Shown here piece by piece: positions 1 to 44,862 of a stretch of DNA of 64,000 nucleotides. Origin of the DNA: Marinobacter bohaiensis. GTDB taxonomy: Bacteria; Pseudomonadota; Gammaproteobacteria; Pseudomonadales; Oleiphilaceae. Position 1 is the first letter of the stretch. Each line of letters opens with the position of its first letter. The translations under genes were made by a program, and so were the position numbers. The stretch is from assembly GCF_003258515.1 (NCBI RefSeq), contig NZ_QGEH01000007.1:62001-126000 (forward strand), written 5' to 3'. Below the pieces are notes generated by a model, which was not told the DNA's origin, ran no database searches, and saw only the letters and a program-made list of their open reading frames with translations.

Positions 1-1387
1 TGACCAGACCCAGCTTGTGGCCGGTCTCGGTCAGGCGCAGGTCGGCGTTGTCTTCGCGCAGGATCAGACGGTATTCCGCACGGCTGGTGAACATGCGGTA
101 CGGCTCGGAGGTGCCCATGGTGATCAGGTCGTCCACCAGTACGCCCAGATAGGCCTCGTCCCGGCGCGGGTACCAGGGGTCTTTTTCCTGCGCCCGCAGC
201 GAAGCGTTGATGCCCGCCAGCAGCCCCTGGGCGCCGGCCTCTTCGTAGCCGGTGGTGCCGTTGATCTGACCGGCAAAGTAGAGCCCGCCGATGAACTTGG
301 TTTCCAGCGTGTGGCGCAGGTCCTGCGGGTTCAGGTAATCGTACTCGATGGCATAGCCGGGACGCGTGATGTGCGCGTTCTCGAAGCCCGGGATCGAACG
401 CACCGCCTTGAGCTGGATATCGAACGGCAGGCTGGTGGAGATGCCGTTGGGGTACAGCTCGCTGACCGTCAGGCCTTCCGGTTCGACGAAAATCTGGTGC
501 GAGTCCTTGTCCGCGAAGCGGTTCACCTTGTCCTCGATGGACGGGCAATAGCGCGGGCCCACGCCCTCGATGTCGCCGGCAAACATGGGCGAGCGGTCAA
601 AGCCGCTGCGGATGATGTCGTGGGTCTCCTCGGTAGTGCGGGTCACGTAGCAGCACACCTGCTCCGGGTGCTGGTCGCGGGAGCCCAGGAAGGACATGAC
701 CGGGGTCGGGTCGTCCCCCCACTGTTCCTGCATCACCGAGAAATCGACGCTGCGACGGTCGATGCGCGGCGGCGTGCCGGTTTTCAGGCGACCGACGTTG
801 AACGGCAGTTCGCGCAGGCGCTGTGCCAGGGCAATCGCGGGGGGATCGCCGGCACGGCCGCCGGCGTGGTTCTTCAGCCCCATGTGGATAACCCCACCCA
901 GGAAGGTGCCGGTGGTCAGCACCACGTTGGCGGCGCTGAAGCGGATACCGGTCTGGGTCACCACGCCGCGCACCTGGTCGCCTTCGACGATCAGATCGTC
1001 GGCGGCCTGCTGGAAGATGGTCAGGTTGGGCTGGTTTTCCAGCACCTCGCGGATGGCGGCTTTATAGAGCACGCGGTCGGCCTGGGCGCGGGTCGCGCGC
1101 ACCGCCGGTCCCTTGCGGGAATTGAGCACCCGGAACTGGATACCGGCCAGATCCGTGGCCTGCGCCATGGCGCCCCCGAGAGCGTCGATCTCCTTGACCA
1201 GATGGCTCTTGCCGATCCCGCCGATGGCGGGGTTGCAGGACATCTGGCCCAGGGTCTCAATGTTGTGGGTCAGCAGCAGCGTACGGGATCCCATCCGCGC
1301 GGCCGCCAGGGCAGCCTCGGTACCGGCATGGCCGCCGCCGATTACGATGACATCGAAACGATCCGGGAACTCCACAATACACCTCAT
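1..1387 (-). CDS. mnmG: tRNA uridine-5-carboxymethylaminomethyl modification enzyme MnmG (5' part; gene runs off the left edge)
   Basis: MnmG is the FAD-binding partner of MnmE and modifies the wobble uridine of certain tRNAs in the cytoplasm. About 462 codons of the usual ~630 are in the window; the C-terminus lies beyond position 1. Visible are the N-terminal dinucleotide-binding motif [14 protein letters not shown], the family block [19 protein letters not shown], and both MnmG signatures, [12 protein letters not shown] and [14 protein letters not shown]. The ATG at 1387 gives a short leader. A GTG at 1375 preceded by AGGTG gives the more typical N-terminus [14 protein letters not shown] and may be the true start. 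mnmG normally sits next to mnmE, but here mnmE is about 26 kb away at 27621-28982. A perfect DnaA box lies inside the gene at 883-891. Identification is secure; only the start is open. Confidence 0.96.
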
Positions 1388-1795
1388 GGGAATGGGGAAC
1401 CTCTGATTCAGCCAGAAGTTCCTGAACAAAATGGGTGCGAAGTATACCGCTTACGCCGGGCAAATTGCAGGGGTTCTGAATACTTTTTAACCAGCCCTTA
1501 GAGCCTTTGGGAATAAACACCTTTCAATTCGCAAAAATTGCTTGGCGGCTCAACTGGTTGTGAGGCGCACCTGAGAAAACTTTTCAAAAAACTTATCCAC
1601 ACTGCGGCCAAGTCCCAAACGGCCAAATAACAACAATAAATCATTGATATAAATAAAATAAAAAGTCACTTTCTCACGACTTCTTCAAGGTTATTCATGC
1701 TTTTATCCACAACCCCGGGCGTGCCCTCCGCACAAACGCCCCCGACCGAAAAGCGGCGATCGGCATGGGGGTAAACGCTTACCCGCCGGGACCAC
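1388..1795. other. Intergenic region upstream of mnmG: AT-rich block with two perfect DnaA boxes
   Basis: No gene is seen here. The region holds the mnmG leader and promoter. A strongly AT-rich stretch at about 1624-1675, very unlike the GC-rich surroundings, is flanked by two same-orientation DnaA boxes (TTATCCACA) at 1593-1601 and 1703-1711. This arrangement resembles an origin unwinding element; an AT-rich mnmG promoter is the simpler alternative. In E. coli the origin lies next to the mnmG (gidA) gene, which makes the resemblance worth testing. Confidence 0.55.
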
Positions 1796-3676
1796 TCAGG
1801 CCCGCCCTCCACGCAGGGTTTTCACCGCGTCCTCAAGGCCCGCGGCGCTCACCCGTCCGGGTTCCCAGGCTGGCCCGGCCACCAGCCCGATGCGCGACCA
1901 GAATCGCTTGGGTGGATGGGTGCCAGCGGTACCGCCTTTGTGACTGAATACGCTGCCCCAGAGCCCCTGCAACGCCATGGGCACGACCGGCACCGGGGTC
2001 TGCTCCACCAGCGTCTCGATGCCCTGGCGGAAGCGGTCAATCTCGCCGTCGGTGGTGAGTTTGCCTTCCGGGAAAATGCACACCACGTTGCCCGCTTCCA
2101 GTTCCTCCGCCACCTTCTGCAGGGCCGCGTCGTAGACCTCGGGCTTCTTGCTGCGCGGTGCAATGGGAATGGTCTGGGCCAGACGGAAGAACCAGCCCAG
2201 CAACGGCGAGCGGAAGATTCGCTCGTCCATGATGAACCGCACCGGACGCCGCACGGCGCCGGCGATCACCAGGGGATCGGTGTAGGACACGTGATTGCAG
2301 ACCAGGATCGCCGGCCCCTCGTCCGGAATGTGTTCCAGCCCCTCGTGACGGACCCGGTAAATGGTGTGCGACAGGCACCAGATGATGAAACGCAGGGCGA
2401 ACTCGGGCACCTGGGCGTAGACATAACCGGCCACCACCAGGTTGGCAATGGACAGCACCAGCAGGAATTCGGGAATGCTCAGCCCTAACGGGCCCAGCAT
2501 CAGGGCGCCCACCAGCGCACTGACCACCATGAACAGGGCGTTGATCACGTTCAGCGCGGCGATCACCCGGGCCCGCTTGGCGGCCTCGGCCCGCTGCTGA
2601 ACGAACGCGTAGAGCGGCACGATGAAAAAGCCGCCAAACAGCCCAACGCCCAGCAGATCCGCCAGCACCCGCAGACCGGAGGCGCTGGTCAACAGGCTCA
2701 TCCATGTGGATTCCACTGGCGCCGCCGGCACGCTGAAGTACAGGTCCAGCCCGAACAGGCTCAGGCCCAGCGACCCGATGGGCACAATGCCCAGCTCCAC
2801 CCGGTGGCCGGAGAGCTTCTCACACAGCATCGAGCCCAGGGCGATGCCGATGATGAACACCGCCAGCAGCAGGGTCACCACGGTTTCGTCCCCCAACAGG
2901 TCGACCTTGGCGAAGTTGGGGAACTGGGTCAGATAGGCCGCGCCCAGGAACCAGAACCAGGAAATGGCCAGGATGCCCTGGAACACGGCGTGGTTTTCCC
3001 GGGCGATGCCGATCAGGCGCCAGGTTTCCCGCAGCGGCTGCAGGCGCAGCGTCAGGTCCGGCGAGGCGGCGGATGCCGACGGCACCTGCCGCGCCGCCAG
3101 ATACCCCAGCACCGCCATCACCAGCACGCCGATGGCGATCCAGTGCACCGCGTCGGCGCCGACCATGACCACGCCCGCCAACAGCATGCCCAGCAGGATC
3201 GCGACGAAGGTGCCCATCTCCACCAGGGCGTTGCCGCCGACCAACTCGTCGTCCCGCAGCACCTGGGGCAGGATGGCGTATTTCACCGGCCCGAAGAACG
3301 CCGACTGGGTGCCCATCAGGAACAGCAGGAGGAACATCACCTCGTACCAGCCCTGCCAGAGACCCACGGCAGCGACCAACATGATCAGGATCTCCGCCGC
3401 CTTGACCCAGCGAATCACCCGCGCCTTGTCGTACTTGTCCGCCACCTGCCCGGCAATGCCGGAAAACAGGACGAACGGCAGGATGAACAGCAGCGCCGCC
3501 AGGTTCACCGCCACGTCTGTGGATAACCCCAGCAGGCCGCGCGCCACGCCGTAGGTGATCAGGAACAGCAGCGCGTTCTTGAAGAAGTTGTCGTTGAGGG
3601 CGCCCAGGAACTGGGTCAGGAAGAACGGCAGGAAACGTCGCTGCCCCATCAGCCGGAACTGGCTTTGATCCGCCAT
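1796..3676 (-). CDS. MFS transporter fused to a PlsC-type 1-acylglycerol-3-phosphate acyltransferase (LplT-Aas-like)
   Basis: The N-terminal ~430 residues are a twelve-helix-type major facilitator domain resembling lysophospholipid flippase LplT (FFLTQFLGALNDNFFKNA near the start). The C-terminal ~180 residues are a PlsC/LPLAT acyltransferase with the catalytic NHxxxxD motif (CNHVSYTDPL, about residue 460) and the FPEG glycerol-phosphate-binding motif (about residue 534). By family knowledge such fusions take up lysophospholipids and re-acylate them at the inner membrane. The AMP-ligase (Aas) domain found in longer homologues is absent, so the acyl donor must come from elsewhere. ATG at 3676 is chosen because AAAGGA lies about 10 nt upstream; an in-frame TTG at 3739 would add 21 residues. 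A perfect DnaA box sits at 3518-3526. The substrate is inferred. Confidence 0.85.
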   Translation of the reverse strand: MADQSQFRLMGQRRFLPFFLTQFLGALNDNFFKNALLFLITYGVARGLLGLSTDVAVNLAALLFILPFVLFSGIAGQVADKYDKARVIRWVKAAEILIMLVAAVGLWQGWYEVMFLLLFLMGTQSAFFGPVKYAILPQVLRDDELVGGNALVEMGTFVAILLGMLLAGVVMVGADAVHWIAIGVLVMAVLGYLAARQVPSASAASPDLTLRLQPLRETWRLIGIARENHAVFQGILAISWFWFLGAAYLTQFPNFAKVDLLGDETVVTLLLAVFIIGIALGSMLCEKLSGHRVELGIVPIGSLGLSLFGLDLYFSVPAAPVESTWMSLLTSASGLRVLADLLGVGLFGGFFIVPLYAFVQQRAEAAKRARVIAALNVINALFMVVSALVGALMLGPLGLSIPEFLLVLSIANLVVAGYVYAQVPEFALRFIIWCLSHTIYRVRHEGLEHIPDEGPAILVCNHVSYTDPLVIAGAVRRPVRFIMDERIFRSPLLGWFFRLAQTIPIAPRSKKPEVYDAALQKVAEELEAGNVVCIFPEGKLTTDGEIDRFRQGIETLVEQTPVPVVPMALQGLWGSVFSHKGGTAGTHPPKRFWSRIGLVAGPAWEPGRVSAAGLEDAVKTLRGGRA

Positions 3677-5365: not shown

Positions 5366-5389
5366 ATAACCGGACCTGTGGATAAAACG

Positions 5390-8300
5390 TCAGGTCTCGT
5401 CCCGCCGCGGTGACTGCACCGACCCGGCCAGGGTGCCTGTGCTCCCCTGCCCCCGAATTTCCGCCTCCAGCGCCTTTTCCACCGCGTTGGTGGACTTGGC
5501 AAAGCGGGCGATCAGGTTGTACAGCACCGGAATGATGAACAGGGTCAGCGTGGTGGCGAAAATCAGCCCGCCCAGCACCACCGCGCCGATGGCCGCCCGA
5601 CTTTCCGCGCCCGCGCCGGTGGCGATCACCAGCGGCACCGCGCCGAAAATGGTGGAAATGGTGGTCATCAGCACCGGCCGGAAGCGCAGGATGGCGCCTT
5701 CGACGATGGCGTCGTGGACGCTACGGCCCTCATCCCGCAACTGGTTGGCGAACTCCACGATCAGGATACCGTTCTTGGCCATCAGCCCCAGCAGCATGAT
5801 GATCCCGATCTGGCTGTAGATGTTCAGGCTGATGCCGGACCACCAAAGGGCCATGAGCGCGCCGGTGACCGCCAGCGGCACCGACAGCATGATGATCAGC
5901 GGGTGGATCCAGCTCTCGAACTGGGCCGCCAACACCAGGAAGACAATGATGAACGCCAGCACGAAGGTGATGTAGATGGCGTTGGAGGATTCCTCGAACT
6001 CCCGGCTCAGGCCCTTGTAGCTAATGCGCGCCTCCGGCGGCAGGTTATCCACAGCCAGCTGGTTCATGTAGGCCAGGGCCGACCCCAGGTCGTAGCCCGG
6101 CGCCAGCGAACCGCTGATCACCACCGCCGGCAGCCGGTCGATGCGGCGCAGGTCCGGGTTGGCGCCGATTTCCTGCAGGTTGACCAGCGCCCCCAGCGGA
6201 ATCAGCTCGCCGCCGTCCCGGGGTCGCAGGAAGATGTTGTTCAGGTCCGACGGCGTGGCCCGGTCGGCGTCCGCCGCCTGCAGGATCACGTCGTACTCCC
6301 GGCCCCGGTCAATGTAAGAGGTCACCTGCCGCGAAGCCAGCATGGTCTGCAGGGTGTTGCCCACATCCTGCACGGTAACGTCGAGATCGGCGGCACGCTG
6401 GCGATCCAGGCTGACCCGCAGCTCCGGCCGGGTCAGCTCGAAGTCGGTCTCCAGGTTGAGCAGATTGGGATTCTGCTTGGCCCGTTCCAGGATTTCCTCG
6501 CTCCAGGCCTGCACCGTGTCGTAATCCGGCCCGCCGATCACGAACTCGATGGGCTGATTGAAACCGCGCTGCCCCAACCCCGGCGGGTTGACCGCCACCG
6601 AGCGCACGCCGGGCACTTCCGCCAGCTTGGGAAACAGCTGGGCACTCAAGTCCTGCTGCTTGATGTCGCGCTCGGCCCAGTCCGTCAGCCCCAGGATCAG
6701 GAAGGCGTTATCCGCCTCCTCTCGAAAACCCACGATGGCCAGCAACCGGTCCGCCACACCTTCTTCGATGTAGGGCAACAGGCGTTCCTCGATCTGGCGC
6801 ACGTGATGATCAGTGTACTCCACCGTCGATCCGCGCGGCGCCTTGGTGGGCATGATGATCACGCCGCGATCCTCGGTGGGTGCCAGCTCCTGGGGCAGGC
6901 TGGGGAAAATCACCGCCGACAGCAGGATGCCCGCCAGGCCCAGCCCCAGGACCAGGCCCGGCTGGCGCAGGGAGAATTTGAGCAGGCGTTCGTAGCCCCG
7001 GTTGAGGCCGTTGAACAGACGCTCGGAGAACGCCCACAGGCGATGGCCCTCGGCGGTTTCCGGGCTGTGCCTGAGCCACTTGGAGCAGAGCATCGGCGCC
7101 AGGGTCAGCGCCACCAGGCTGGAGACGATCACCGCGCTGGCCAGGGTAAAGCCGAATTCCCCGAACAGCCGGCCGATGTTGCCGCCCATGAACGAAATGG
7201 GCACGAACACCGCCACCAGCGTCAGGGTGGTGGCGATCACGGCGAAGGCCACCTGCCGCGCCCCCAGATAGGACGCCAGCAGCGGCGGTTCGCCGTTGTC
7301 GATGCGGCGCTGGATGTTCTCCAGCATGACGATGGCGTCGTCCACCACCAGGCCGATGGCGAGGATAATCGCCAGCAGCGTCAGCACGTTGATGGAAAAG
7401 CCCATGATGCCCAGGCCGATGAAGGCGCCGATCACCGCCACGGGGATGGTCACCGCCGGAATCAGGGTGGCGCGCCAGGAACGCAGGAACACGAAGATCA
7501 CCAGGATGACCAGGGAGATGGCGATGCCCAGCGTGATCATCACCTCCTGGATGGAGGCGCGGATGAAGATGGACTCGTCGTAGCTCTGGCGGATCGACAC
7601 TTCCGGTGGCAGAGTTTCGCGGATGTGCTCCATTTCCGCCCGCACCCGGTCGGACACGGCCACGGTGTTGGCCTTGGACTGGCGGATGATGCCCATGCCG
7701 ATAGCGGTACGGCCGTTGGCGCGCAGGCGGCTGGTATCGGATTCCACCCCCATCACCACATTGGCCACTTCGCCCAGGCGCAGCAGGTCGTTGCCGTCGC
7801 GGCGGACCACCAGGTTGCGGAACTCGTCCACGGTGGATAAGCGCCCCTCGGCGCGCACGGTGAAGTCGCGGTTGGTGGACTCAATGGACCCGGCCGGCAA
7901 TTCCACGTTATTGGCGCGCAGGGCCGATTCCACCTCCGACACGGTGATGTCGTGGGACGCCAGCTTCTCCCGCTGCAGCCAGACGCGGATGGCGTAGCGG
8001 CGCTCGCCGCCGATCTGCACGTCCGCCACCCCGTCCAGCACCGACAGCCGGTCGGCCAGCACCCGCTCCGCGAAATCGCTGAGCTGGGCGGCGTCCCACT
8101 CGTCGCTCTGCAGGGTGACCCACATCATCGGGCGGGCGTCGGAATCCGCCTTGCGCACCACCGGCGCGTCGGCCTCGTCCGGCAATTCGTCGGCCACCCG
8201 GGCGATGGCATCGCGCACGTCGTTGGCGGCCACGTCGATGTCGCGGTCGGTGGTGAATTCGATGGAGGTGCGGGACTCGCCCTGCTCGGTACTGGACTCG

Positions 8301-8541: not shown

Positions 8542-9636
8542 TCAGCCTTCCTGACGGTCCGGCCAGCCACCGCCGATCAGGGCGTTCTCGCCTTCGATGA
8601 CTTCCACGGCGTCGCCGCTGCTGAGTCGATCCTGGCCGGTAATGACCACGGCATCGGATTCGCTCAGGCCGCTGGCTACTTCCACCCGGCCGGGCGAGCG
8701 GGTGCCCAGCTCCACCGGCTGGCGCCGGGCCTGGCCGTCCACGGCGAGGAAGACGTACTGGCTGTCGCCGCGGGTCATCACCGCCTGCTCGGGAATCACC
8801 AGCGCACGGCGGGTGTCCAGGGTCAGGGACACGGCCATGAACAGTCCCGGCCGCAACACACCGTCCGGGTTGTCGATCACCGCCTTGACCGGCAGCGAGC
8901 GGGTCAGGGGGTTAAGCCGGGAGTCCATTTCCGACAGGGCGCCGTCGAAAGAACGCCCGGCGTAGGCGGCGGTACCCGCCCGCAGCGTCTGGCCCATGCT
9001 GATCTGGCCCAGGTAACGCTCGGGAATGGAAAACGTCAGCTCCATCGGGTCGATGGCATCCAGGGTGGCGATGCTGTCGCCGGCATCCAGGTAGGTGCCG
9101 ACACTGACATCGGTGAGGCCAACCACACCGGCAAACGGCGCCCCGATGCGGTGGTTATCCAGGCGGGTGCTGGCGGCGATACGCTGGGCCTCCGCGACGC
9201 TCAGGGCGGTGCGCAACTCGTCCACCTCGGACTGGGAAATACTGCCGCGGCCCTGCAGGCGCGAGGCGCGATCGTACTTGGTGCGGGCATCGCGCAGCTG
9301 GGCTTCGGCCACCTGCAGGTCGGCGCGGGCCTGGCGGTCGTCGAGCTGGACCAGCAGCTGCCCCTTATCCACAGCGGCGCCCTCGTTAAAAGCCAGCGCC
9401 ACCACCCGACCGCTGACTTCGGCACTGAGCACCACATCCTCACGCGCCTGCAGGGTACCGACGGATTCCACCACATCCTGCACCTCGGCCATGCGCGGAT
9501 AGACCACGTTCACCTTGCTGGCGGGTCGGGCCGCCTGCTGGCCCGACGCCTCGGTGCGCTGCTGCCACCAGACGCCACCGGCGCCGGCCGCGGCAATGAC
9601 CAGGACGGCCACTGCGATCAGGATCTGTTTTCCCAT
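8542..9636 (-). CDS. RND efflux periplasmic adaptor subunit (membrane fusion protein, HlyD/MexE-like)
   Basis: Protein of 364 residues with one N-terminal membrane anchor (ILIAVAVLVIAAAGAGGVWW) and no lipobox cysteine. It then shows the adaptor order: a biotinyl-lipoyl half (SGRVVALAFNEGAAVDKGQLL), a helical hairpin (about 95-160), the second lipoyl half (APFAGVVGLTDVSVGTYLDAG), then beta-barrel and membrane-proximal domains. It should bridge the permease encoded just downstream to an outer-membrane channel. It lies 27 nt after the DUF3833 lipoprotein, suggesting a three-gene operon. DnaA box at 9365-9373. Confidence 0.94.
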   Translation of the reverse strand: MGKQILIAVAVLVIAAAGAGGVWWQQRTEASGQQAARPASKVNVVYPRMAEVQDVVESVGTLQAREDVVLSAEVSGRVVALAFNEGAAVDKGQLLVQLDDRQARADLQVAEAQLRDARTKYDRASRLQGRGSISQSEVDELRTALSVAEAQRIAASTRLDNHRIGAPFAGVVGLTDVSVGTYLDAGDSIATLDAIDPMELTFSIPERYLGQISMGQTLRAGTAAYAGRSFDGALSEMDSRLNPLTRSLPVKAVIDNPDGVLRPGLFMAVSLTLDTRRALVIPEQAVMTRGDSQYVFLAVDGQARRQPVELGTRSPGRVEVASGLSESDAVVITGQDRLSSGDAVEVIEGENALIGGGWPDRQEG

Positions 9637-12283: not shown

Positions 12284-12343
12284 GCCGGGCGGGCGGTTAT
12301 CCACAGGCTGCCCGTCAACCCGACTCCATTGTGTTATCCACAG

Positions 12344-30775: not shown

Positions 30776-30779
30776 AGGT

Positions 30780-32533: not shown

Positions 32534-34033
32534 GTGCCGCAATCTATCTGGCATCAGTGTCTTGATGTACTCCGGGATGAGTTTCCCGCCCAACAGTTCA
32601 ATACCTGGTTGCGTCCCCTGCAGTCCGACCACCGGGACGACCAGCTCATGCTGTTCGCACCCAATCGTTTCGTGATGGACTGGGTGAACGAAAAGTACCT
32701 GCGTCGTATTGAGGAGGTCCTCAAGGATCTGCTCGGCGGCCAGGCGCCACGCATTCAGATGACCGTCGGCAGCGCGCCTGTCCAGGCTGAGCCGGTGGAG
32801 CGCGCCGCAGCACCGGCGCCCGGTCCGGTGGAAAGCGAAGAGGCGGTCAGCGAGGAGGAAAGGGGCGTGGCCGCCACCGTCGTGGAACGTCCGGCCCCTG
32901 CGCCAGCGGCACCGGCGGCAACCACTTCTTCGCCCGCTCCGGCGCGAACCGCGCAGCCTGCAGCCCATACCGGCGAGCGCCGCAATGTCCAGGTTGAAGG
33001 GGACATCAAGCACCAGAGCTTTCTCAATGAAAGCTTCACCTTCGAAACCTTTGTCGAGGGCAAATCGAACCAGCTGGCACGGGCTGCTTCCATGCAGGTG
33101 GCGGAAAATCCCGGGGGAGCCTATAACCCGCTGTTCCTGTATGGCGGCGTCGGCCTGGGTAAAACCCACTTGATGCATGCGGTGGGCAACGAAATCGTTC
33201 GGCGCAATCCGCGAGCCAAGGTGGCGTACCTGCGTTCGGAGCGCTTTGTGGCGGACATGGTCAAGGCCCTGCAGCTCAACGCCATCAACGAATTCAAACG
33301 CTATTATCGGTCGGTGGATGCCCTGCTGATCGATGATATCCAGTTCTTTGCCCGTAAAGAGCGCTCCCAGGAAGAGTTTTTCCACACCTTCAACGCCCTG
33401 CTCGAAGGTGGCCAACAGGTCATCGTCACCTGCGACCGCTTCCCCAAAGAGATCGCGGACATGGAAGAGCGCCTCAAGTCCCGCTTTGGCTGGGGACTGA
33501 CGGTAATGGTGGAGCCGCCGGAGCTGGAAACCCGGGTGGCGATCCTGATGAAGAAGGCGGAGCAGGCCAACGTGCGCCTAAGCAGCGAAGCCGCGTTCTT
33601 TATTGCCCAGAAAATCCGCTCCAACGTACGGGAGCTAGAGGGTGCGCTTCGGTTGGTGATAGCGAATGCTCACTTCACTGGGCAGGAAATCACCCCGCCG
33701 TTTATTCGTGAGAGCCTCAAGGATCTGTTGGCGCTGCACGAGAAGCAGGTCAGCATCGACAATATTCAGCGCACCGTGGCAGAGTACTACAAGATCAAGG
33801 TGGCGGATCTGCTGTCCAAGCGGCGGACCCGCTCCGTGACCCGGCCTCGTCAGGTCGCCATGTCGCTGTCAAAGGAACTGACCAATCACAGTTTGCCGGA
33901 GATTGGCGATGCTTTTGGCGGCCGCGACCACACCACGGTGCTCCACGCCTGCAAGAAAATCGTTGAACTGCAGGAAACGGACGCGAATATCCGGGAAGAC
34001 TATCAGAATTTCATGCGTCTGCTGACGACCTGA
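32534..34033 (+). CDS. dnaA: Chromosomal replication initiator protein DnaA
   Basis: Initiator ATPase of 499 residues that binds DnaA boxes and opens the origin. Domain I starts [22 protein letters not shown]. Domain II is a long Pro/Ala-rich linker (about 85-160). The AAA+ domain has Walker [17 protein letters not shown] (about 205) and Walker [10 protein letters not shown]. Domain IV carries the DnaA signature [20 protein letters not shown] (about 454). GTG 32534, preceded by GGAGG about 10 nt upstream, is preferred over the TTG at 32507. dnaN follows after 65 nt. Confidence 0.98.
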
Positions 34034-34098
34034 TACCGTTCAGCGACGTCCCGATTACGCTGACCAACTAACATCCATATAAACAGAATCCGAGTGCC

Positions 34099-35202
34099 AT
34101 GAAACTGACGATCAGCCGAGAATCCCTCCTGACACCACTGCAGTCGATTGCCGGGGTAGTGGAACGCAAACAGACCATGCCGGTACTGTCGAACGTATTG
34201 CTGGTGGCTGAAGAAAACACCCTGACGCTTACCGGGACCAATATGGAAGTGGAACTGGTGGGCCGGATCCAGCCGGTGCATGTGGACCAGCCGGGCCGGA
34301 TTACCGTGCCGGCGCGCAAGCTGTCCGACATCTGCCGGGCACTCGGGGACGAATCGCCCATTGAGCTGAGTCTGGAAGGCGATCGTCTGCACCTGCGCTG
34401 CGGAGCCAGTCATTTCACCCTGTCCACGTTGCCGGCAGAGCATTTCCCCAATGTGGAAGACGATGCTGAGAGCTTCCGCCTGGAAGTCGCCCAGTCGGAT
34501 CTGGGCACGATGCTTGATGCGACCGCGTTCGCCATGGCGCAGCAGGACGTGCGTTACTACCTGAACGGCCTGTTGCTCGAAGTGGACGGTGAGCACCTGC
34601 GTGCCGTGGCGACCGATGGACACCGTCTGGCCATGTCCCACCTGGCGATGGCAACCGGCATCAATGAACCCCGTCAGGTGATCGTACCGCGTAAGGGCGT
34701 GCTCGAACTGGGCCGCCTGCTGGACGACGTACAGACACCGGTTACCCTCGTGTTTGGTGACAACCACCTGCGTGCCACCGTGGGCGCTTACACGTTTACG
34801 TCCAAACTGATCGAAGGCAAGTTCCCGGACTACAACCGGGTGATTCCGCGTGGTGGTGACAAGACGATGCTGGCCGATCGCGCGACGCTGAAGAACACGC
34901 TGCAGCGGGCCGGGATCCTGTCCCACGAGAACATTCGCGGTGTTCGTCTGAGTCTGGAATCCGGGCGACTGCAGATTTTCGCCAACAACCCGGACCAGGA
35001 GCAGGCGGAAGATGCGTTGCCTGTGGATTACGAGGGCGAGAGTCTGCAGATCGGCTTCAACGTCGGCTACCTGGTGGACGTGCTCAACGCGCTGGACGAT
35101 GACCAGGTGAAAATCACCCTGTCGAATCCCAACAGCAGTGCGTTGATTGAGGCCCAAAATGACGCGAGTTGCCTGTATGTCGTCATGCCCATGAGGCTAT
35201 AG
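34099..35202 (+). CDS. dnaN: DNA polymerase III beta subunit (sliding clamp)
   Basis: 367-residue processivity clamp. The N-terminus MKLTISRESLLTPLQSIAGV, the internal QQDVRYYLNGLLLEVDG block and the C-terminal DDASCLYVVMPMRL-type ending (here NDASCLYVVMPMRL) are characteristic. It follows dnaA in the usual order, but the next gene is a kinase rather than recF. Confidence 0.98.
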   Translation: MKLTISRESLLTPLQSIAGVVERKQTMPVLSNVLLVAEENTLTLTGTNMEVELVGRIQPVHVDQPGRITVPARKLSDICRALGDESPIELSLEGDRLHLRCGASHFTLSTLPAEHFPNVEDDAESFRLEVAQSDLGTMLDATAFAMAQQDVRYYLNGLLLEVDGEHLRAVATDGHRLAMSHLAMATGINEPRQVIVPRKGVLELGRLLDDVQTPVTLVFGDNHLRATVGAYTFTSKLIEGKFPDYNRVIPRGGDKTMLADRATLKNTLQRAGILSHENIRGVRLSLESGRLQIFANNPDQEQAEDALPVDYEGESLQIGFNVGYLVDVLNALDDDQVKITLSNPNSSALIEAQNDASCLYVVMPMRL

Positions 35203-35332
35203 AGTAAGAGGCAGCTCGGAGGCGGGTCGGACTCTTTCCCGGCCCGCGTAAACCTTCCCAGACAGGTATTGTTCCGGAGTCTGCTGCTGTTGTTCTGCCG
35301 TTCAGGCTCCTTCGGTAACGAGGAGATTTACA

Positions 35333-36601
35333 ATGGTAGTGAATGGCATCAAGGGCGCCTTCCGGATCGGTCAGACTCTGACCGTACTCGGCAAAACCGG
35401 GGTCAACTGGCTCCGGGGAGATCGGCCGCCAACGCCGGCACTGTTGCGGCAGACGTTTGAAAACCTGGGTGCGACCTACATCAAGCTTGGCCAGTTCATC
35501 GCCAGCTCCCCCACCTTTTTCCCGCCCGGTTATGTGGAAGAGTTCCAGAAATGTCTCGACCGCACGCCCGCCCTGCCCTTTTCACTGATGCGGAAAATCC
35601 TGCGCGAGGAACTGAAACAGCCGCTGGAATCCGTTTTCGCGCATATTGATCCGGTCCCGCTGGCATCGGCTTCCATTGCCCAGGTCCATGCCGCTCGGTT
35701 GGTCACCGGTGAAGATGTGGTGATCAAGATCCAGAAGCCGGGTGTGGAGAACATCCTGCTCACGGATCTTAACTTCCTTTACGTATCGGCACGGGTTCTG
35801 GAAACCATTGCCCCAAAACTGTCCTGGACGTCGCTGTCCGGCATTGTCGAGGAAATCCAGCGCACAATGATGGAGGAATGTGACTTCATCAAGGAAGCGA
35901 ACAACCTCAAGACGTTCCGACAGTTCCTCAGTGACAGTCACAACATGGAGGCAACGGTTCCCAGGGTTTATGAAGCCTGCAGTACCCGGAGGGTGCTGAC
36001 CATGGAGCGTTTCTACGGCGTGCCGCTGACCGATCTTGAGTCGATTCGAACGGTCACCAGCGATCCGGAACGCACGTTAATCACCGCAATGAACACCTGG
36101 TTCTCCAGCCTCACCCAATGCGAGTTTTTTCACGCCGACGTTCATGCGGGCAACCTGATGGTGCTGCGCGATGGTCGGGTGGGCTTTATCGACTTTGGCA
36201 TTGTCGGCCGAATCAAGCCGGATACGTGGCAGGCGGTGTCGGATTTTATTTCCGCGGTGATGGTCGGGCAGTTCGAAGGCATGGCGGATGCGATGGTTCG
36301 GATTGGGGTGACCCATGCCAGGATAGACGTCAACCAGTTGGCCGACGATCTTCGGCGTCTGTATAACCAGATGGACCGGATGGTGCCGGACACGCCCACG
36401 CCCTATGCCGCTGAGGAGGCAGAGGACGAGGTTAACAATATCCTGATGGATATGGTGAAGATCGGTGAATCCCACGGCCTGCATTTCCCGCGCGAGTTCG
36501 CGCTGTTGATCAAGCAGTTCCTTTATTTCGACCGCTATGTGCATATCCTCGCACCGGAAATGGACATGTTCATGGACGAGCGCCTGAATCTTCTGCATTG
36601 A
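35333..36601 (+). CDS. AarF/ABC1/UbiB-family protein kinase-like protein
   Basis: 422-residue atypical kinase. Family features in order: ENLGATYIKLGQFIASSP (KxGQ motif), PLASASIAQVHAARL (alanine-rich loop), VIKIQKPG (ATP lysine), EECDFIKEANNL, catalytic loop HADVHAGNLMV (usually HADPHPGN) and metal-binding FIDFGIVGR. It lacks the C-terminal transmembrane pair of UbiB, so it is not the standard ubiquinone gene and may be a soluble paralogue. Members act in quinone or lipid metabolism; the precise role here is unknown. Its position, 130 nt after dnaN and before recF, interrupts the normally compact dnaA-dnaN-recF-gyrB cluster. A parS palindrome lies just past its stop. Confidence 0.9.
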   Translation: MVVNGIKGAFRIGQTLTVLGKTGVNWLRGDRPPTPALLRQTFENLGATYIKLGQFIASSPTFFPPGYVEEFQKCLDRTPALPFSLMRKILREELKQPLESVFAHIDPVPLASASIAQVHAARLVTGEDVVIKIQKPGVENILLTDLNFLYVSARVLETIAPKLSWTSLSGIVEEIQRTMMEECDFIKEANNLKTFRQFLSDSHNMEATVPRVYEACSTRRVLTMERFYGVPLTDLESIRTVTSDPERTLITAMNTWFSSLTQCEFFHADVHAGNLMVLRDGRVGFIDFGIVGRIKPDTWQAVSDFISAVMVGQFEGMADAMVRIGVTHARIDVNQLADDLRRLYNQMDRMVPDTPTPYAAEEAEDEVNNILMDMVKIGESHGLHFPREFALLIKQFLYFDRYVHILAPEMDMFMDERLNLLH

Positions 36602-37478
36602 TTCCAAGAGGCTATCTATCCTGGCCGAAGTAAGATGTTCCACGTGGAACATCTTACTTCGATGCCTTTTCTCCTTCGCTTCCCTTCCCGAGTATCAGTA
36701 AGTCCCTTGTTCAAGGTCATGTCTCTCCTGCTACCGGCCCGTTGAACATCCTTTACCGATAGATCATCAACGGTAATCGGTGAATGACGGCCGAGACTTT
36801 TGGCTCTGCCTGGTCCGCTACTCTTTTCTGCTGGTGACCGTCTTTGGAACTTCGATGCGCCGATTGTGGGTAGGGTAGGGTTTGGCTCTCGGAGCTCCAG
36901 AACTTTGATGACTCCTGGTTAAACTCTGTCCAGAGGAAATCCGAAGCGACAAACCTTAGCGAATCAGAAAGGATATCTGTGGAAAACTTTCTGGGCGGGC
37001 TGTCCGCTGCGGAGATTGGTGCCGTATGCACAGTCGGTCTCCCGGAATGGCTCGACGGAATTTTGGTGCGATAGCAGCCGTGCGCTGACTCAATTGGCGA
37101 GTGCGCTATGTCATTAAGGGCCGCGCCAGCCAAGGCTTTACGCCGTGTTAGCGATATAGGAAGGAGCAGGGCTGGCCAGATTCGTGAGCGGAGTTGGGGC
37201 AGAATCGGTGTTCTGGTCGAAGCCTTCGAGACCGGCCCTTCGCCACGGATTATCCTGTGGACAACTGTGTGGGAGAAATTCGCGCCGGCGCGAATGCCTG
37301 AGTAATTTGGGGAAGCGAGCCAGCGAATTTATACACAGCGGCGGAGCGATTGAGGCGTTTCGGAACGTTGGGTTTAGGAACGCCGTGTTGCTGAAGGATG
37401 TCGACGTCGGGACTGCATTCGCTGCCCGTTAACCTGTAGACTACGGACTGGCCTTTCTGGAACGGACACACCGGGTGC
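36602..37478. other. Long intergenic region between the AarF-like gene and recF
   Basis: 877 nt without a credible gene. It holds a parS-centred palindrome (36626-36661), TGTGGAAAA (36977), TGTGGACAA (about 37248), a consensus-type DnaA box TTATACACA (37329-37337) and an 18-bp palindrome ATTCGCGCCGGCGCGAAT (37278-37295). Small open frames here look like chance. The recF promoter must lie near the right end. It could be a second DnaA/ParB control region or the remains of a lost gene. Confidence 0.5.
36626..36661. other. parS site inside a 36-bp perfect palindrome
   Basis: The core TGTTCCACGTGGAACA at 36636-36651 is the ParB-binding centromere sequence. Symmetry extends to 18-bp arms (36626-36643 and 36644-36661), longer than ParB needs. 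Lying just after the AarF-like stop and followed by CCTTTTCT, the RNA hairpin could also help end transcription. parA/parB are presumably left of mnmG, outside the window. Confidence 0.92.
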
Positions 37479-38597
37479 ATGGCACTACTCAGACTTCAGA
37501 CCCAACAGTTTCGTAACCTGGCGCCCGCCAATCTCAACTTTTCCCCTTCCGTGAACCTGATCTACGGTGCCAATGGCAGCGGCAAGAGCAGCGTGTTGGA
37601 AGCCATTGCCTATCTCGGCCTCGGGCGATCCTTCCGGGTCAATCGTCACGAAGCGGTGGTTTGCCACGGACAAGAGAACCTGACGGTGTTTGGCGAAGTC
37701 CGTGAGCCTGAGCCGGCGGGCGCGTCGCCCCACCCCCTGACCCATCGCATTGGTCTGTTTCGGGATGTCGCCCAGGGCGAGACCCGCTTGAAGGTGGATG
37801 GCGAACGTGTGAAGACGCTTTCCTTCGTGGCGCGTCATTTGCCCGTGTCCGTGATCGATCCGGGGACTTTCGATATTGTGACCGGTGGTCCCGGGAAGCG
37901 TCGGCAGTTTCTCGACTGGTCAGTGTTCCACGTGGAACATGGTTTCTCGACCCTGTGGCAGCAGTGCCAGCGGGCGATTTCGCAGCGGAATAAAATTCTC
38001 AGAAATGGTAGAATTGACGAATCGTTGCTCAGCATCTGGGACCGTCAGTATGTTGCTCTGGCGGAGCAGGTGACTGAAGTCCGAAAAGCCGTGTTCGATC
38101 AGTTCCGCCCGCTGCTGGAGCGCATCATCGAGGATATCGATGCGCCGTGGCGACAGGATCTCAAGTTCGAGTTTTTTCCCGGCTGGGATCGCAAAGCCCG
38201 TCTGGCGGATGTGCTGGCCGGGCACCGGGAGCAGGAATCCAAGGTAGGACATACCCTGTACGGCCCCAATCGTGCCGACGTACGCGTCAAATACCAGGGT
38301 CGCCCGGTGGCGGAAACCCTGTCGCGAGGCCAGCAGAAAACCCTGGTGATACTGATGAAGATTGCCCAGGGCGAGCTGCTCAAGCAGCACGGCCGGCAAT
38401 GCACGTTCTTACTGGACGATATCAACGCGGAGCTCGACGAGAATCACCGTCGAATGCTGGCTGGCAAGCTCCGAGATCTTGGCAGCCAGGTGTTCATCAC
38501 CTCGATCGAACCGCCACGACCTGCCGAACTCTGGCAGGAACCCATGCCCGATTTCAAAGTGTTCCACGTGGAACATGGCGAGTTTACGGAAGAATAA
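37479..38597 (+). CDS. recF: DNA replication and repair protein RecF
   Basis: 372-residue SMC-like ATPase that loads RecA at gapped DNA. Visible are Walker A YGANGSGKSSVLEA (about 30-43), the family block VIDPGTFDIVTGGPGKRRQF, the ABC signature LSRGQQKTLVILM and Walker B LLDDINAELD. Two exact parS sites lie in the gene and, being in the same frame, each encodes VFHVEHG (residues 149-155 and 361-367). gyrB follows after 24 nt. Confidence 0.97.
   Translation: MALLRLQTQQFRNLAPANLNFSPSVNLIYGANGSGKSSVLEAIAYLGLGRSFRVNRHEAVVCHGQENLTVFGEVREPEPAGASPHPLTHRIGLFRDVAQGETRLKVDGERVKTLSFVARHLPVSVIDPGTFDIVTGGPGKRRQFLDWSVFHVEHGFSTLWQQCQRAISQRNKILRNGRIDESLLSIWDRQYVALAEQVTEVRKAVFDQFRPLLERIIEDIDAPWRQDLKFEFFPGWDRKARLADVLAGHREQESKVGHTLYGPNRADVRVKYQGRPVAETLSRGQQKTLVILMKIAQGELLKQHGRQCTFLLDDINAELDENHRRMLAGKLRDLGSQVFITSIEPPRPAELWQEPMPDFKVFHVEHGEFTEE
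37924..37939. other. parS site within recF (first)
   Basis: Exact TGTTCCACGTGGAACA, the 16-bp ParB-binding palindrome, encoding part of VFHVEH in RecF. Identical to the sites at 36636 and 38560. Confidence 0.92.
38560..38575. other. parS site within recF (second, near the 3' end)
   Basis: Exact TGTTCCACGTGGAACA in the last codons of recF, again read as VFHVEHG. With the sites at 36636 and 37924 it makes a cluster of three in 2 kb close to the origin, as expected for a chromosomal centromere. Confidence 0.92.
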
Positions 38598-41036
<2,439 letters not shown>

Positions 41037-41145: not shown

Positions 41146-41895
41146 TCAGGACTTGTCTTTGTCGTCCTGGGCGGCGGCCAGGGCCGGTGACAGTACCTCT
41201 TCCAGCTTGAAGCCGGTCAGGTTACGGATGGCGCGCCACAGATAGTAGAAAATGGCGATCATCATGATCATCGAGGGGATGGCGATCATCGGATAGCTCA
41301 CCAGGGTCATCTGGCCCAGCTCCTCATTGAACGCCGGTGTGCCGGACGGGCTGGTGACGATCCATTTGGCGATGATGTAGTTCATCACCGAGGAAAACAG
41401 GAATGTGCCCGCGAAGTAGTAGCTGGCCCGCATCAGACGGGTTTCGAACACCCCTTCATTGCCCTTCTCCACCAGCGCATCGTGGATTTTATCCACATCG
41501 AGCACCGTGCGGTTGTACAGTAGCGTCCGCACCAGTGGATAACGCGTCTTTGTGGATATCAGCACGGCCAGGCCGATGATCAGTGGCACGGCGGCTTCCT
41601 TGATCGCCAGCCATTCGGCATCCAGGTGCAGCAGGCCGATGCCGCCGGTCAACAGGATGCTGATCAGCCCCAGTACCGCAATGAAGTTCTTCTTGCCAAA
41701 GCGGACCAGTTCATACAGACCCCAACCCAATGGAAAGGCCAGCGCCACGATGAGCGCGTTGGCCGACCCCAGGTCCTGCTCGCCGCTGAACTTCATGAGG
41801 ATGACGGAAGGAATAACGATACTGATCAGCAGGTCGGCCCAGGGGCGTTGCTGATGTTTCGGCGCGGTGGCGGCCGCTGAGGATTGTTGACTCAT
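41146..41895 (-). CDS. VC0807-family inner-membrane protein
   Basis: 249 residues with several membrane helices (LLISIVIPSVILMKFSGEQ; ALIVALAFPLGWGLYEL; FIAVLGLISILLTGGIGLLHL; FLFSSVMNYIIAKWIV; MIAIPSMIMMIAIFYYLW). The pattern and the SGEQDLG and SVMNYIIAKWIV segments fit my recollection of VC0807-type proteins, whose function is unknown. ATG 41895 (MSQQSSAAAT) is chosen. A longer open frame to 42171 would run through the tRNA gene and is rejected. In Pseudomonas the corresponding slot between gyrB and gmhB holds an acyltransferase gene. Confidence 0.8.
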   Translation of the reverse strand: MSQQSSAAATAPKHQQRPWADLLISIVIPSVILMKFSGEQDLGSANALIVALAFPLGWGLYELVRFGKKNFIAVLGLISILLTGGIGLLHLDAEWLAIKEAAVPLIIGLAVLISTKTRYPLVRTLLYNRTVLDVDKIHDALVEKGNEGVFETRLMRASYYFAGTFLFSSVMNYIIAKWIVTSPSGTPAFNEELGQMTLVSYPMIAIPSMIMMIAIFYYLWRAIRNLTGFKLEEVLSPALAAAQDDKDKS

Positions 41896-42221: not shown

Positions 42222-42776
42222 TCAGGATCCGTCCGCGCCGAGCAGGTTATCCACAAACGCAGACAGATTCTTCCAGACCGTCACAGCGCCCAGAGGCGCT
42301 TTGTGTAGCTCTTTTTCGGTTTGCCGGCCGTTGCCCGTACGAACCAGCGCGGCGGCCTTACAGCCCGCCGCCAGGCCCGCCTCGAGGTCCTTGCGACTGT
42401 CCCCCACCATGATCGCGTCCGTCAGGTCCGCCAGACCCAGTTGGTCGCGGATGTCCTCCAGCAGACCGGTGCGGGGTTTGCGGCAGTTGCAGTCCTCGTC
42501 CGGGTGATGCGGACAGTAGGCGATGCAGTCGATGCGACCGCCCACGGCGTCCACCAGGCGGCGCAGCTGGGCGTGCATGGCGTCGAGGATGAGATGGTCG
42601 TAGAAACCCCGGGCGATGCCGGACTGGTTGGTGGCCACGGCCACCTGATGCCCGGCCCGGGTCAGGCGGCCAATGGCGTCGATGCTGCTGGCTATCGGCA
42701 GCCACTCCTCGACCGAACAGATGTATTCACCGTGGTAACGGTTAATCACTCCGTCGCGGTCGAGGATGATCAGCAT
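42222..42776 (-). CDS. gmhB: D-glycero-beta-D-manno-heptose-1,7-bisphosphate 7-phosphatase
   Basis: 184-residue HAD-superfamily phosphatase of ADP-heptose synthesis for the lipopolysaccharide inner core. The nucleophile motif is ILDRDGVIN (Asp 6 and 8), followed by ATNQSGIARG and the zinc-binding loop CPHHPDEDCNCRKPRTG typical of GmhB, then the acidic MVGDSRKDLEAG. It follows glyS by 4 nt and is probably in the glyQ-glyS-gmhB transcript, as in Pseudomonas. DnaA box at 42247-42255. Confidence 0.95.
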   Translation of the reverse strand: MLIILDRDGVINRYHGEYICSVEEWLPIASSIDAIGRLTRAGHQVAVATNQSGIARGFYDHLILDAMHAQLRRLVDAVGGRIDCIAYCPHHPDEDCNCRKPRTGLLEDIRDQLGLADLTDAIMVGDSRKDLEAGLAAGCKAAALVRTGNGRQTEKELHKAPLGAVTVWKNLSAFVDNLLGADGS

Positions 42777-42780
42777 CGCG

Positions 42781-44862
42781 CTAGCCGGTCGGCAGCAGGG
42801 AAATGTCCGCCACCTGCAGGAACAGGTTCCGCAGGCGATTGAGCAGCGCCAGCCGGTTACGTTTCACGGACTCGTCGTCGGCCATCACCATGACCTCGTC
42901 GAAGAAACGGTCCACCGTCTCGCGCAGATCCGCCAGGGACGCCAGTGCCGCGGCGTAGTCGCCTCGTGCGAACAGCGGCGCAACCTTCTCCGCCTGGGCG
43001 TCCACCGCGTCGGCCAGCGCCTTCTCAGCGTCGTCCTGCAGCAGACTGGCGTCGACGGTGTCGCCCAGACTGTCCCCACCCTGCTTCACCAGGATGTTGG
43101 ACACGCGCTTGTTGGCAGCGGCCAAGGCTTCGGCGGCCGGCAGCTGACGGAATTTTTCCACAGCCTGGATACGCTGTTCGAAGTCCAGCGGCCGGGTCGG
43201 ACGGCGGGCGTGCACCGCCAGGTAAACCTCGGCGCCGATGCCCTGTTCCTCGTAATGGGCGCGGAACCGTTCCAGCATGTAGTCCACCACCGGCGTGACC
43301 GGGTCCTCCACCGTCAGCGAGGTGAAGTTATCGGCCGCCCACTGGCAGCAGGTTTGCAGGTCCAGCGGCAGCTCACGCTCGACGATGATACGCAGCACGC
43401 CCAGCGACGAGCGACGCAGGCCGAACGGGTCGCGGGTACCGGAAGGCGGCTGGTTGATACCGAACAGGCCGACCAGCGAGTCCAGGCGATCCGCCAGTGC
43501 CACCGCGCTACCGGTCAGGCTGCGGGGCAGGTCGTCGCCGGCAAAGCGCGGCATGTACTGCTCGTTCAGGGCCCCGGCCACCTCGTCCGGCTCGCCGTCG
43601 TTGCGGGCGTAGTATTCGCCCATGATGCCCTGCAGGTCGGTGAACTCCAGCACCATTTCGCTGACCAGGTCGGTCTTGGCCAGCATCGCGGCGCGCTCGG
43701 CGTATTGCGGGTTGCCGTCGATGGCTTCGGCAATCTTCTTCGCCAGGCTGGCCACGCGCACGGACTTGTCGTGCAGGCTGCCCAGTTTTTCCTGGAAGAC
43801 GATCGGCTTGAGGGCGTCGATGCGGCTTTCCAGGGTGTGCTTGCGGTCGGTGTCGTAGAAGAAGGCGGCATCGGCCAGACGCGGACGGATGACCTTCTCG
43901 TTGCCTTCGACCACCTGTTGCGGGTCCTTGCTCTCCAGATTGGCCACGGTGATGAACAACGGCAGCATGCGATCTGCGTTATCCACAACGTGGAAGTACT
44001 TCTGGTGTTCCTTCATGGAGGAGATCAGCGCCTCGGCGGGCACGTCCAGGAAGCGTTCCTCGAAAGCGCCCATCAGCGGCACCGGCCACTCGTTGAGGGC
44101 GGTGACCTCGTCCAGCAGTTCCTCATCGATGACGGCCTTACCGTCCTTTTCCTGCGCCAGGCGGGTCACGCCGGCGCGGATCTTGTCGCGACGTTCGGCA
44201 AAGTTGGCCAGCACGTAGCCTTCCTCGCGCAGGACCAGTTCGTAGGCGTCCGGCGTCGGAATAATCAGTTCCTTGGGGCAATGGAAGCGGTGGCCGCGGG
44301 TCTCGTTACCCGCCGGCAGCCCCATGATGTCGGCGTCGATGATCTTGCTGCCGAACAGCAGCACGATCCAGTGCACCGGGCGCACGAATTCGGACTTGTG
44401 GGCGCCCCAGCGCATGCGCTTGGGAATCGGCAGACCGGCCAGCGACTGGTTGACCAGATCCGGCACCAGATCGGCGGTGGCCTTGCCCTGCTCGACGGTG
44501 CGGTAGACCACCCAGGCGCCCTTTTCGGTTTCCAGGGTATCCAGCTGGTCCGGCGTCACGCCCAGGGACGTGGCGAAGCCGGTCAGCGCGCGGGTCGGGT
44601 TGCCGGCGTCGTCGAAGGCCGCCTTCACGGCGGGACCGCGTTTTTCCACAGCCTTGTCCGGCTGGGCGTCGGCCAGGTCACTGACGCGGATGGCCAGACG
44701 GCGCGGCGCGGCAAAGGATTCCACCTTGCCATACTCGATACCGGCGTCGTCGAGGCCTTTGCAGAAACCGGCGGTGAACGCCTCGGACAGCGTCTTCAGC
44801 GCCTTGGGAGGCAGCTCCTCGGTGCCGATTTCGACCAGAAAATCCTGTGTTGCCATGATCAT
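42781..44862 (-). CDS. glyS: Glycine--tRNA ligase beta subunit
   Basis: 693-residue beta subunit of the bacterial two-subunit glycyl-tRNA synthetase. The N-terminus [20 protein letters not shown] is diagnostic, and the C-terminal region is the anticodon-binding helical domain. The ATG at 44862 overlaps the glyQ stop codon (ATGA), coupling the two subunits; a second ATG at 44856 gives MATQDF. DnaA box at 43979-43987. Confidence 0.97.

What the first reader, a model, noticed from the sequence alone, without database searches (positions are those of the whole stretch)
883..43987. Perfect DnaA boxes are strewn through about 43 kb around the origin, mostly inside genes
TTATCCACA occurs 23 times by my reading (14 plus, 9 minus), against about 0.5 expected by chance in 64 kb. 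Seventeen are within coding sequences, in varied genes and both orientations, and nine fall between 12297 and 17298. None occurs from 43988 to 64000. This suggests selection for a DnaA-titrating or origin-organising domain, perhaps analogous to E. coli datA but spread out. Codon preference is a weak alternative, since sites occur in both orientations and in non-coding DNA.
Basis: partly seen in the sequence, partly recalled or inferred. Interest (0 to 1): 0.78.

Follow-up and report, generated by a model that had tools for sequence, protein, structure and literature searches.

The report
DnaA-box-rich origin domain in Marinobacter
In this marine bacterium, over half of the genome's perfect binding sites for the replication-starting protein DnaA sit in the 2% of the genome around the likely replication origin, mostly inside genes, which looks like an evolved sponge that stops replication from restarting too soon.

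Summary
In detail: 23 perfect TTATCCACA boxes, 17 in genes, none after 43,987. The window shows only part of the feature. In the whole genome (Marinobacter-like, 4.76 Mb) 31 of 59 perfect boxes lie in one 85-kb stretch, about -42 to +42 kb around a probable oriC upstream of mnmG. TTATCCACA is the most over-represented 9-mer there. Base composition, codon use and repeats are ruled out: 18 of 34 coding positions whose protein sequence permits a perfect box carry one, against 4 of 70 in sampled stretches elsewhere. Ten of 11 genomes of two Marinobacter-type genera are enriched; of seven other genera (one genome each) one is, and E. coli has 4 boxes in 88 kb. Single boxes are conserved little above background, so density near the origin appears to be selected rather than given sites. 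The yidC-dnaA-gyrB genes are avoided. SeqA was not found; Hda was. Best explanation: an origin-proximal DnaA titration domain, the layout that published theory says would keep titration working at fast growth. The concept is known from E. coli; this compact, gene-embedded form is an extreme variant. DnaA binding and function are inferred, not shown.

The parts
1..43987 (.). part of the DnaA-box-rich domain that lies in the window; it continues about 41 kb to the left of the window (contig 21005-62000)
   Evidence: 31 exact boxes in contig 21005-105987, 23 of them in the window
1..1429 (-). 5' part of mnmG (gidA); carries the conserved intragenic box at 883
   Evidence: mnmG profile match at contig 61519-63357; gene call to 1429: box identical in 10 of 10 Marinobacter-type genomes compared
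1450..1720 (.). probable oriC: AT-rich segment (78% AT in the best 60 bp, from 1626) between two perfect boxes 110 bp apart, upstream of mnmG
   Evidence: a same-orientation perfect pair about 110 bp apart lies 0.17-0.41 kb upstream of mnmG in 14 of 18 family genomes examined; one perfect box in 3, none in 1 (G019)
883..891 (-). perfect DnaA box in mnmG, conserved
1593..1601 (+). perfect DnaA box, probable oriC
1703..1711 (+). perfect DnaA box, probable oriC
3518..3526 (-). perfect DnaA box in the aas-like gene 1796-3739
5377..5385 (-). perfect DnaA box, intergenic; TTATTCACA 16 bp away
6045..6053 (+). perfect DnaA box in the RND permease gene
   Evidence: identical in 6 of 10 relatives compared
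9365..9373 (+). perfect DnaA box in the RND adaptor gene
12297..12305 (+). perfect DnaA box, intergenic group
12334..12342 (+). perfect DnaA box, intergenic group (37 bp from the previous one; TTATCCCCA 59 bp further)
12585..12593 (+). perfect DnaA box in the PhyH-family gene
13613..13621 (-). perfect DnaA box, intergenic
13688..13696 (+). perfect DnaA box in ORF 13678-14331 (no Pfam match)
14846..14854 (-). perfect DnaA box in ORF 14328-14867 (no Pfam match)
16362..16370 (-). perfect DnaA box in the gamma-glutamyltranspeptidase gene
17149..17157 (-). perfect DnaA box in the gamma-glutamyltranspeptidase gene
17290..17298 (-). perfect DnaA box in the gamma-glutamyltranspeptidase gene; ATATCCACA 16 bp away
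22211..22219 (+). perfect DnaA box in the SBP_bac_5 gene
24633..24641 (+). perfect DnaA box in the SBP_bac_3 gene
28019..28027 (-). perfect DnaA box in mnmE
28501..28509 (+). perfect DnaA box in mnmE
41489..41497 (+). perfect DnaA box in ORF 41146-42171 (no Pfam match)
42247..42255 (+). perfect DnaA box in a HAD-hydrolase gene
43979..43987 (+). perfect DnaA box in glyS; rightmost box of the cluster
29075..41036 (.). gap: yidC-rnpA-dnaA-dnaN-recF-gyrB block without perfect boxes in this genome
   Evidence: permissive coding sites used over 11 genomes: 0 of 19 (g1) and 2 of 14 (g10)
32507..34033 (+). dnaA (508 aa)
   Evidence: over the TIGR00362 cut-off
31620..32506 (.). rpmH-dnaA intergenic region: second candidate origin or dnaA control region; only variant boxes (31978, 32173, 32253)

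Best explanation
An origin-proximal DnaA titration domain. About 30 perfect boxes and 15 TTTTCCACA boxes have been scattered by selection through roughly 85 kb around the origin, where protein sequence allows them. Just after initiation the forks copy this stretch first, doubling over half of the cell's perfect sites within about a minute (fork speed recalled). The new sites soak up DnaA and hold its free level below the threshold for another start. Shown: the clustering, its closeness to the origin region, its specificity for the DnaA-box 9-mer, independence from codon use, recurrence in most Marinobacter-type relatives with high turnover of single sites, and no SeqA found. Inferred: that DnaA occupies the sites in cells and that occupancy limits re-initiation.
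For: Clustering: 31 of 59 genomic boxes in 1.8% of the genome. Specificity: 31 observed against 0.25 expected (third-order Markov); the 1680 strand-collapsed permutations, the motif included, average 0.18 and the next highest is 5; TTTTCCACA (15 in the core, 8 in 361 kb of other sequence) and ATATCCACA (6 and 4) are enriched; no conserved flank, so no repeat element. Codon control: 18 in coding against 0.33 +/- 0.59, maximum 3 of 400 shuffles; 18 of 34 permissive sites occupied against 4 of 70 in sampled stretches elsewhere; between mnmG and yidC 13 of 14 are occupied. Relatives: within 40 kb of the mnmG origin 10 of 11 Marinobacter-type genomes are enriched at p<0.001 (the other p=0.05), against 1 of 7 genomes of other genera; permissive occupancy 10-58% against 0-6%, permuted motifs 0.2-3%. 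Turnover: over ten relatives 35 of 121 aligned boxes are identical, where 9-24% of all 9-mers are. In one pair compared, 4 of 7 proteins at +25 to +40 kb of G037, which hold its densest patch, have no match in the origin contig of this genome, and 2 more are the gyrB end and its neighbour. DnaA domain IV looks nearly identical to that of E. coli by eye. SeqA in 0 of 18 genomes with E. coli positive; Hda over cut-off in 17 of 18. [quoted passage not shown] My minimal model: uniform sites give premature initiations at some or all tau/C below 1, depending on the refractory time, while G000-like and G037 layouts stay at one initiation per doubling in every setting.
Against: No binding data. In E. 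coli ChIP-seq, DnaA prefers double boxes 2-3 bp apart (PMC11317965, passages), whereas these are mostly lone boxes with no conserved neighbour, so occupancy may be weaker than assumed. About 31 boxes is small beside the roughly 300 DnaA per origin quoted for E. coli (PMC10977104, passages), so the domain is a main sink only if DnaA copy number is low here. G001, same genus, has only two boxes beyond the oriC trio within 40 kb, and its layout was not stable in the first simulation (short refractory time), so the trait is not essential to the genus. G019, of another genus, is also enriched (3 boxes, p=9e-4). The cumulative GC-skew minimum lies at or beside mnmE-yidC in 13 of 18 genomes and at mnmG only in G019, so the centre of the domain is uncertain; the symmetry about mnmG in G000 is not seen in relatives. 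The edge is graded in G037 (33, 7 and 2 boxes per 100 kb at 20-43, 43-100 and 100-200 kb).
Confidence: 0.6

Rival explanations
1. Origin organisation: DnaA bound at many nearby sites folds or tethers the origin region (a nucleoprotein domain for segregation or origin identity), and titration is a by-product.
For: The domain is compact in this genome (no perfect box for 60 kb beyond its right edge) and covers both candidate origins.
Against: No common spacing of box pairs; positions turn over between species; no shared left-right symmetry. The permissive-site edge within genus g1 is not significant on its own (5 of 22 inside, 2 of 39 beyond +45 kb, p=0.09).
Confidence: 0.2
2. Scattered nucleotide-switch sites: groups of boxes act like datA or DARS and change the DnaA-ATP/ADP ratio rather than merely binding DnaA.
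For: A few close groups exist: 12297/12334/12393, 5361/5377, 17274/17290.
Against: Most boxes are solitary; pairs within 60 bp that include an exact box number 17 over 11 genomes and share no common spacing.
Confidence: 0.08
3. Another DNA-binding protein that reads the same 9-mer is the real target.
For: DnaA binding was not tested here, so no call excludes it.
Against: The enriched variants fit DnaA boxes (TTWTNCACA type, position 1), and the DnaA recognition domain looks conserved.
Confidence: 0.05
4. By-product of base composition, codon preference, a repeat family or an acquired island.
For: Most boxes lie in genes (20 of 31 by the gene calls).
Against: Permutations, Markov expectation, synonymous shuffles, permissive-site comparison, unrelated flanks, and boxes on both sides of the origin and in relatives.
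Confidence: 0.02

Closest known systems
E. coli and Salmonella origin-region DnaA-box enrichment (Olivi et al. 2025, PMC12371093)
   Same: Boxes accumulate around oriC above uniform and permuted-motif expectation, read by the authors as favourable for titration.
datA of E. coli
   Same: Lowers available or active DnaA after initiation; near the origin.
   Different: One compact multi-box locus with IHF that promotes ATP hydrolysis; here mostly lone boxes over 85 kb, mostly inside genes. IHF sites were not tested.
oriC-proximal DnaA-box clusters of Bacillus subtilis (Okumura et al. 2012, seen only as cited in PMC5295017)
   Same: Boxes outside the origin restrain initiation; deletion of all six clusters gives early initiation.
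   Different: Six discrete clusters in a Firmicute, not a scatter inside genes; [quoted passage not shown] subtilis.
Autoregulated initiator-titration model with sites near the origin (Berger and ten Wolde 2022, PMC9640692)
   Same: Says that only origin-proximal titration sites would prevent premature re-initiation at high growth rates.
   Different: A theoretical case that its authors judged inconsistent with E. coli; no organism is named for it in the passages seen.

Membership tests
Origin-proximal DnaA-box enrichment (E. coli type) | Box density near oriC above uniform and permuted-motif expectation | tested here: met
Origin-proximal DnaA-box enrichment (E. coli type) | Enrichment persists when the boxes of oriC itself are left out | tested here: met
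   24 boxes within 40 kb outside -0.6..+0.5 kb, density 44 times that of the rest of the genome
Origin-proximal DnaA-box enrichment (E. coli type) | Conserved in related genomes | tested here: met
   10 of 11 Marinobacter-type genomes p<0.001 (G001 p=0.05); 1 of 7 genomes of other genera in the family
Origin-proximal DnaA-box enrichment (E. coli type) | Strand preference of the boxes | tested here: inconclusive
   outward 66 of 108 about mnmG (p=0.03), but 61 of 112 about yidC (p=0.4)
datA-type locus | Compact cluster of boxes with an essential IHF site | tested here: not met
   for the domain as a whole: mostly lone boxes over 85 kb; IHF sites not tested
Initiator titration system | DnaA occupies the sites in the cell and free DnaA falls after they are copied | not testable with these tools
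   needs ChIP-seq or single-molecule tracking
SeqA-dependent control | SeqA gene present | tested here: not met
   no match to PF03925 in 18 of 18 genomes, E. coli control positive
oriC next to mnmG (E. coli type) | AT-rich segment with conserved DnaA boxes upstream of mnmG | tested here: met
   perfect pair in 14 of 18 family genomes
oriC next to mnmG (E. coli type) | Cumulative GC-skew minimum at the site | tested here: not met
   minimum at +27.5 kb in G000; at mnmG only in G019 of 18

The most novel reading that the evidence does not exclude
In Marinobacter, where no SeqA is found, an origin-flanking field of perfect DnaA boxes written through synonymous codon choice is the main brake on re-initiation: a natural case of the near-origin titration architecture that theory says would be robust at fast growth and that E. 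coli was judged not to have.
Probability: 0.35. Interest if true: 0.85.

Novelty: new variant of a known kind. Interest (0 to 1): 0.72.

Why it matters
Whether titration by itself can control bacterial replication has been argued for decades, and E. coli is a hard test because SeqA, datA, DARS and RIDA overlap. A lineage without a detectable SeqA that has filled about half of its protein-permitted positions near the origin with perfect DnaA boxes offers a natural system in which the sites can be removed by synonymous recoding, with protein sequence unchanged. The species series (5 to 27 boxes within 40 kb of the mnmG origin) allows dose comparisons. It also looks like a replication-control signal written into synonymous codons across unrelated genes.

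Tried and rejected
Codon preference, base composition and repeats were tested and rejected. A domain strictly symmetric about the mnmG origin was attractive in G000 (-42.4 to +42.6 kb) but relatives do not share it: genus g1 carries boxes mostly 20-43 kb left of mnmG and between mnmG and yidC, genus g10 mostly between mnmG and yidC and right of gyrB, so I do not claim it. A sharp common right edge: the pooled contrast (30 of 59 inside, 2 of 39 beyond +45 kb) mixes genera, because sequence beyond +45 kb was held for genus g1 only; within g1 it is 5 of 22 against 2 of 39, p=0.09, so I do not claim it. Strand orientation was weak and depends on the assumed origin. Fixed spacing of box pairs: none. 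Conservation of single boxes: little above background except the box inside mnmG, the oriC pair and 6045. Single-mismatch forms at positions 4, 6 and 8 are too rare (0-1 each in the core) to test. The first simulation used too short a refractory time, so uniform sites failed everywhere; it was replaced, which reran uniform, G000 and G037 only. In one search the G040 layout wavered slightly (CV up to 0.09) and G001 failed at two of five growth rates. The background includes one stretch (C1:570001-590000) that I chose knowing it held four boxes, which makes that comparison conservative. The core interval 21005-105987 was set by its outermost boxes after seeing them; the fixed-distance tests around mnmG avoid this. 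Genome sizes of most relatives are the rounded values given by the tool.
Full report
What was checked. The window holds 23 exact TTATCCACA, 14 plus and 9 minus, at the positions given, against 0.2 expected. It lies at 62001-126000 of a 168-kb contig of a 4.76-Mb genome. The closest DnaA relatives listed are Marinobacter halodurans and M. mangrovi at 91% identity. Matching contig lengths suggest that G002 and G003 are those two species and that genus g10 includes M. pelagius (G028); this is inference.

Extent. The genome has 59 exact boxes; 31 lie between contig positions 21005 and 105987, so the feature runs 41 kb beyond the left edge of the window. The reversed motif occurs 8 times genome-wide. 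In 20,000 random placements of 59 sites the fullest 85-kb stretch held 10.

Specificity. In the 85-kb core TTATCCACA is the most over-represented 9-mer (31 against 0.25); the 1680 strand-collapsed permutations, itself included, average 0.18 and the next has 5. Among single-mismatch forms TTTTCCACA (15 in the core, 8 in 361 kb of other sequence) and ATATCCACA (6 and 4) are clearly enriched; other forms at positions 1 and 5 are few but lean the same way, TGATCCACA is not clearly enriched (2 and 5), and forms at positions 4, 6 and 8 are too rare to judge. This fits the DnaA consensus TTWTNCACA. Bases beyond the 9-mer are not conserved, so it is not a larger repeat.

Codon control. With home-made gene calls, 18 boxes lie in genes wholly inside the core; 400 synonymous shuffles give 0.33 +/- 0.59, maximum 3. 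Counting coding positions where some synonymous spelling would give a perfect box, 18 of 34 are occupied in the core and 4 of 70 in the sampled rest (Fisher p=1e-7). Between mnmG and yidC 13 of 14 are occupied. Caveat: occupied sites count as permissive by definition.

Where the origin is. The window starts in mnmG (minus strand). Its upstream region has two perfect boxes 110 bp apart around an AT-rich stretch, and such a pair lies there in 14 of 18 family genomes examined, one box in 3 and none in G019. This is the E. coli position. A second candidate is the rpmH-dnaA region 30 kb away, which here holds only variant boxes. Within 40 kb of mnmG the cumulative GC-skew minimum lies at or beside mnmE-yidC in 13 of 18 genomes and at mnmG only in G019, which favours the second candidate. 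DoriC notes that two potential origins are predicted in some Gammaproteobacteria and that it keeps the gidA one (PMC6323995, one passage). I take mnmG as probable, not proven; the domain covers both.

Relatives. Within 40 kb of the mnmG origin, genus g1 has 27 (this genome), 5, 11, 12, 10 and 8 boxes; genus g10 has 7, 14, 25, 11 and 10; one genome from each of seven other genera has 3, 3, 4, 1, 4, 4 and 3, of which 10 of 22 are at the mnmG origin itself. Leaving out -0.6 to +0.5 kb, enrichment over the same genome's remainder has p<0.001 in 10 of 11 Marinobacter-type genomes (G001 p=0.05) and in 1 of 7 others (G019). Permissive occupancy within 43 kb is 20 of 37 here, 21 of 36 in G037, 13 of 26 in G028, 2 of 20 in G001, and 0-6% in the seven others, with 60 permuted motifs at 0.2-3%. 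E. coli MG1655 has 4 perfect boxes in 88 kb around oriC, two of them at oriC.

Pattern inside the domain. Permissive coding sites used, genus g1: 13 of 39 at -43 to -20 kb, 1 of 32 at -20 to 0, 23 of 40 between mnmG and yidC, 0 of 19 in yidC-gyrB, 5 of 22 from gyrB to +45 kb, 2 of 39 beyond. Genus g10: 3 of 19, 3 of 21, 14 of 25, 2 of 14, 25 of 37, with nothing held beyond. The yidC-gyrB block is avoided in both (p=7e-6 and 0.002), although g10 does have 6 perfect boxes in that interval when non-coding DNA is counted. DnaA bound inside a transcribed region can block RNA polymerase (PMC11317965, passage), which could explain the avoidance; this is inference. Raw density falls beyond 43 kb in G004 and G040 (to 0.88 per 100 kb at 43-100 kb) and more gradually in G037. 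Individual boxes turn over: 35 of 121 aligned boxes are identical over ten relatives, where 9-24% of all 9-mers are identical. In the one pair of genomes compared for gene content, the genes around the densest patch of G037 mostly have no match in the origin contig of G000. So density near the origin, more than given sites, appears to be kept.

Mechanism. SeqA gave no match in 18 of 18 genomes while the E. coli control is positive; Hda is over cut-off in 17 of 18. Berger and ten Wolde state that varying the number or affinity of titration sites cannot prevent premature re-initiation at high growth rates and that only placing sites near the origin would, which they judged inconsistent with experiments in E. 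coli (PMC9640692, passages). In a minimal deterministic titration model without SeqA, evenly spread sites gave premature initiations once doubling time fell below the replication time (throughout that range with the shortest refractory time, mainly at tau/C 0.7-0.9 with longer ones), while the G000 layout (28 distant boxes assumed evenly spread, because the contigs are unplaced) and the G037 layout kept one initiation per doubling in all settings tried. At fork speeds recalled as 0.6-1 kb per second, 42 kb takes about a minute.

Known or new. Origin-proximal enrichment and titration are in print for E. coli and Salmonella (PMC12371093: abstract, section 6 and part 1 of the discussion seen), and box clusters are said to restrain initiation in B. 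subtilis (PMC5295017, passages). A search for DnaA boxes with Marinobacter listed two papers, unrelated by title and abstract. Searches on box distribution, clusters, density and titration listed no paper on Marinobacter boxes among the rows shown; passages of PMC5835720 and PMC4948915 were also seen. The library holds open-licence papers only. I file it as a new, extreme variant of a known kind. Function remains inferred.

Noticed in passing
window 29075-41036, and the equivalent block in ten relatives: The yidC-dnaA-dnaN-recF-gyrB coding block uses 2 of 33 permissive box positions (0 of 19 in g1, 2 of 14 in g10) although neighbouring stretches use about half; cause unknown (transcription roadblock or dnaA control are candidates).
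   Followed up: partly
L209-L218; G069, G078, G083, G105, G108: In at least five of ten genomes from other gammaproteobacterial families (listing capped), perfect boxes recur as an inverted pair TTATCCACA-N5-TGTGGATAA. The ten copies fetched lie outside the longest ORFs, often beside a further box-like sequence. They resemble DARS cores (recalled); no exact pair of this kind is among the 59 boxes of this genome.
   Followed up: partly
window 883-891: A perfect box inside mnmG is identical in all ten Marinobacter-type relatives compared, unlike most other coding boxes.
   Followed up: yes
contig 80001-110000 (window 18001-48000): The variant TTTTCCACA concentrates in the right part of the domain (14 of 18 on the contig stretch read), while TTATCCACA peaks at contig 60001-80000 (16 of 32).
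   Followed up: no
G003:C12:166040-196680 and G000:C1:572209-587387: Smaller groups of perfect boxes away from the mnmG origin: 8 in 31 kb in G003 and 4 in 15 kb in this genome.
   Followed up: no
window 12283-12425: Intergenic group of two perfect boxes 37 bp apart plus TTATCCCCA; a possible datA-like locus.
   Followed up: no
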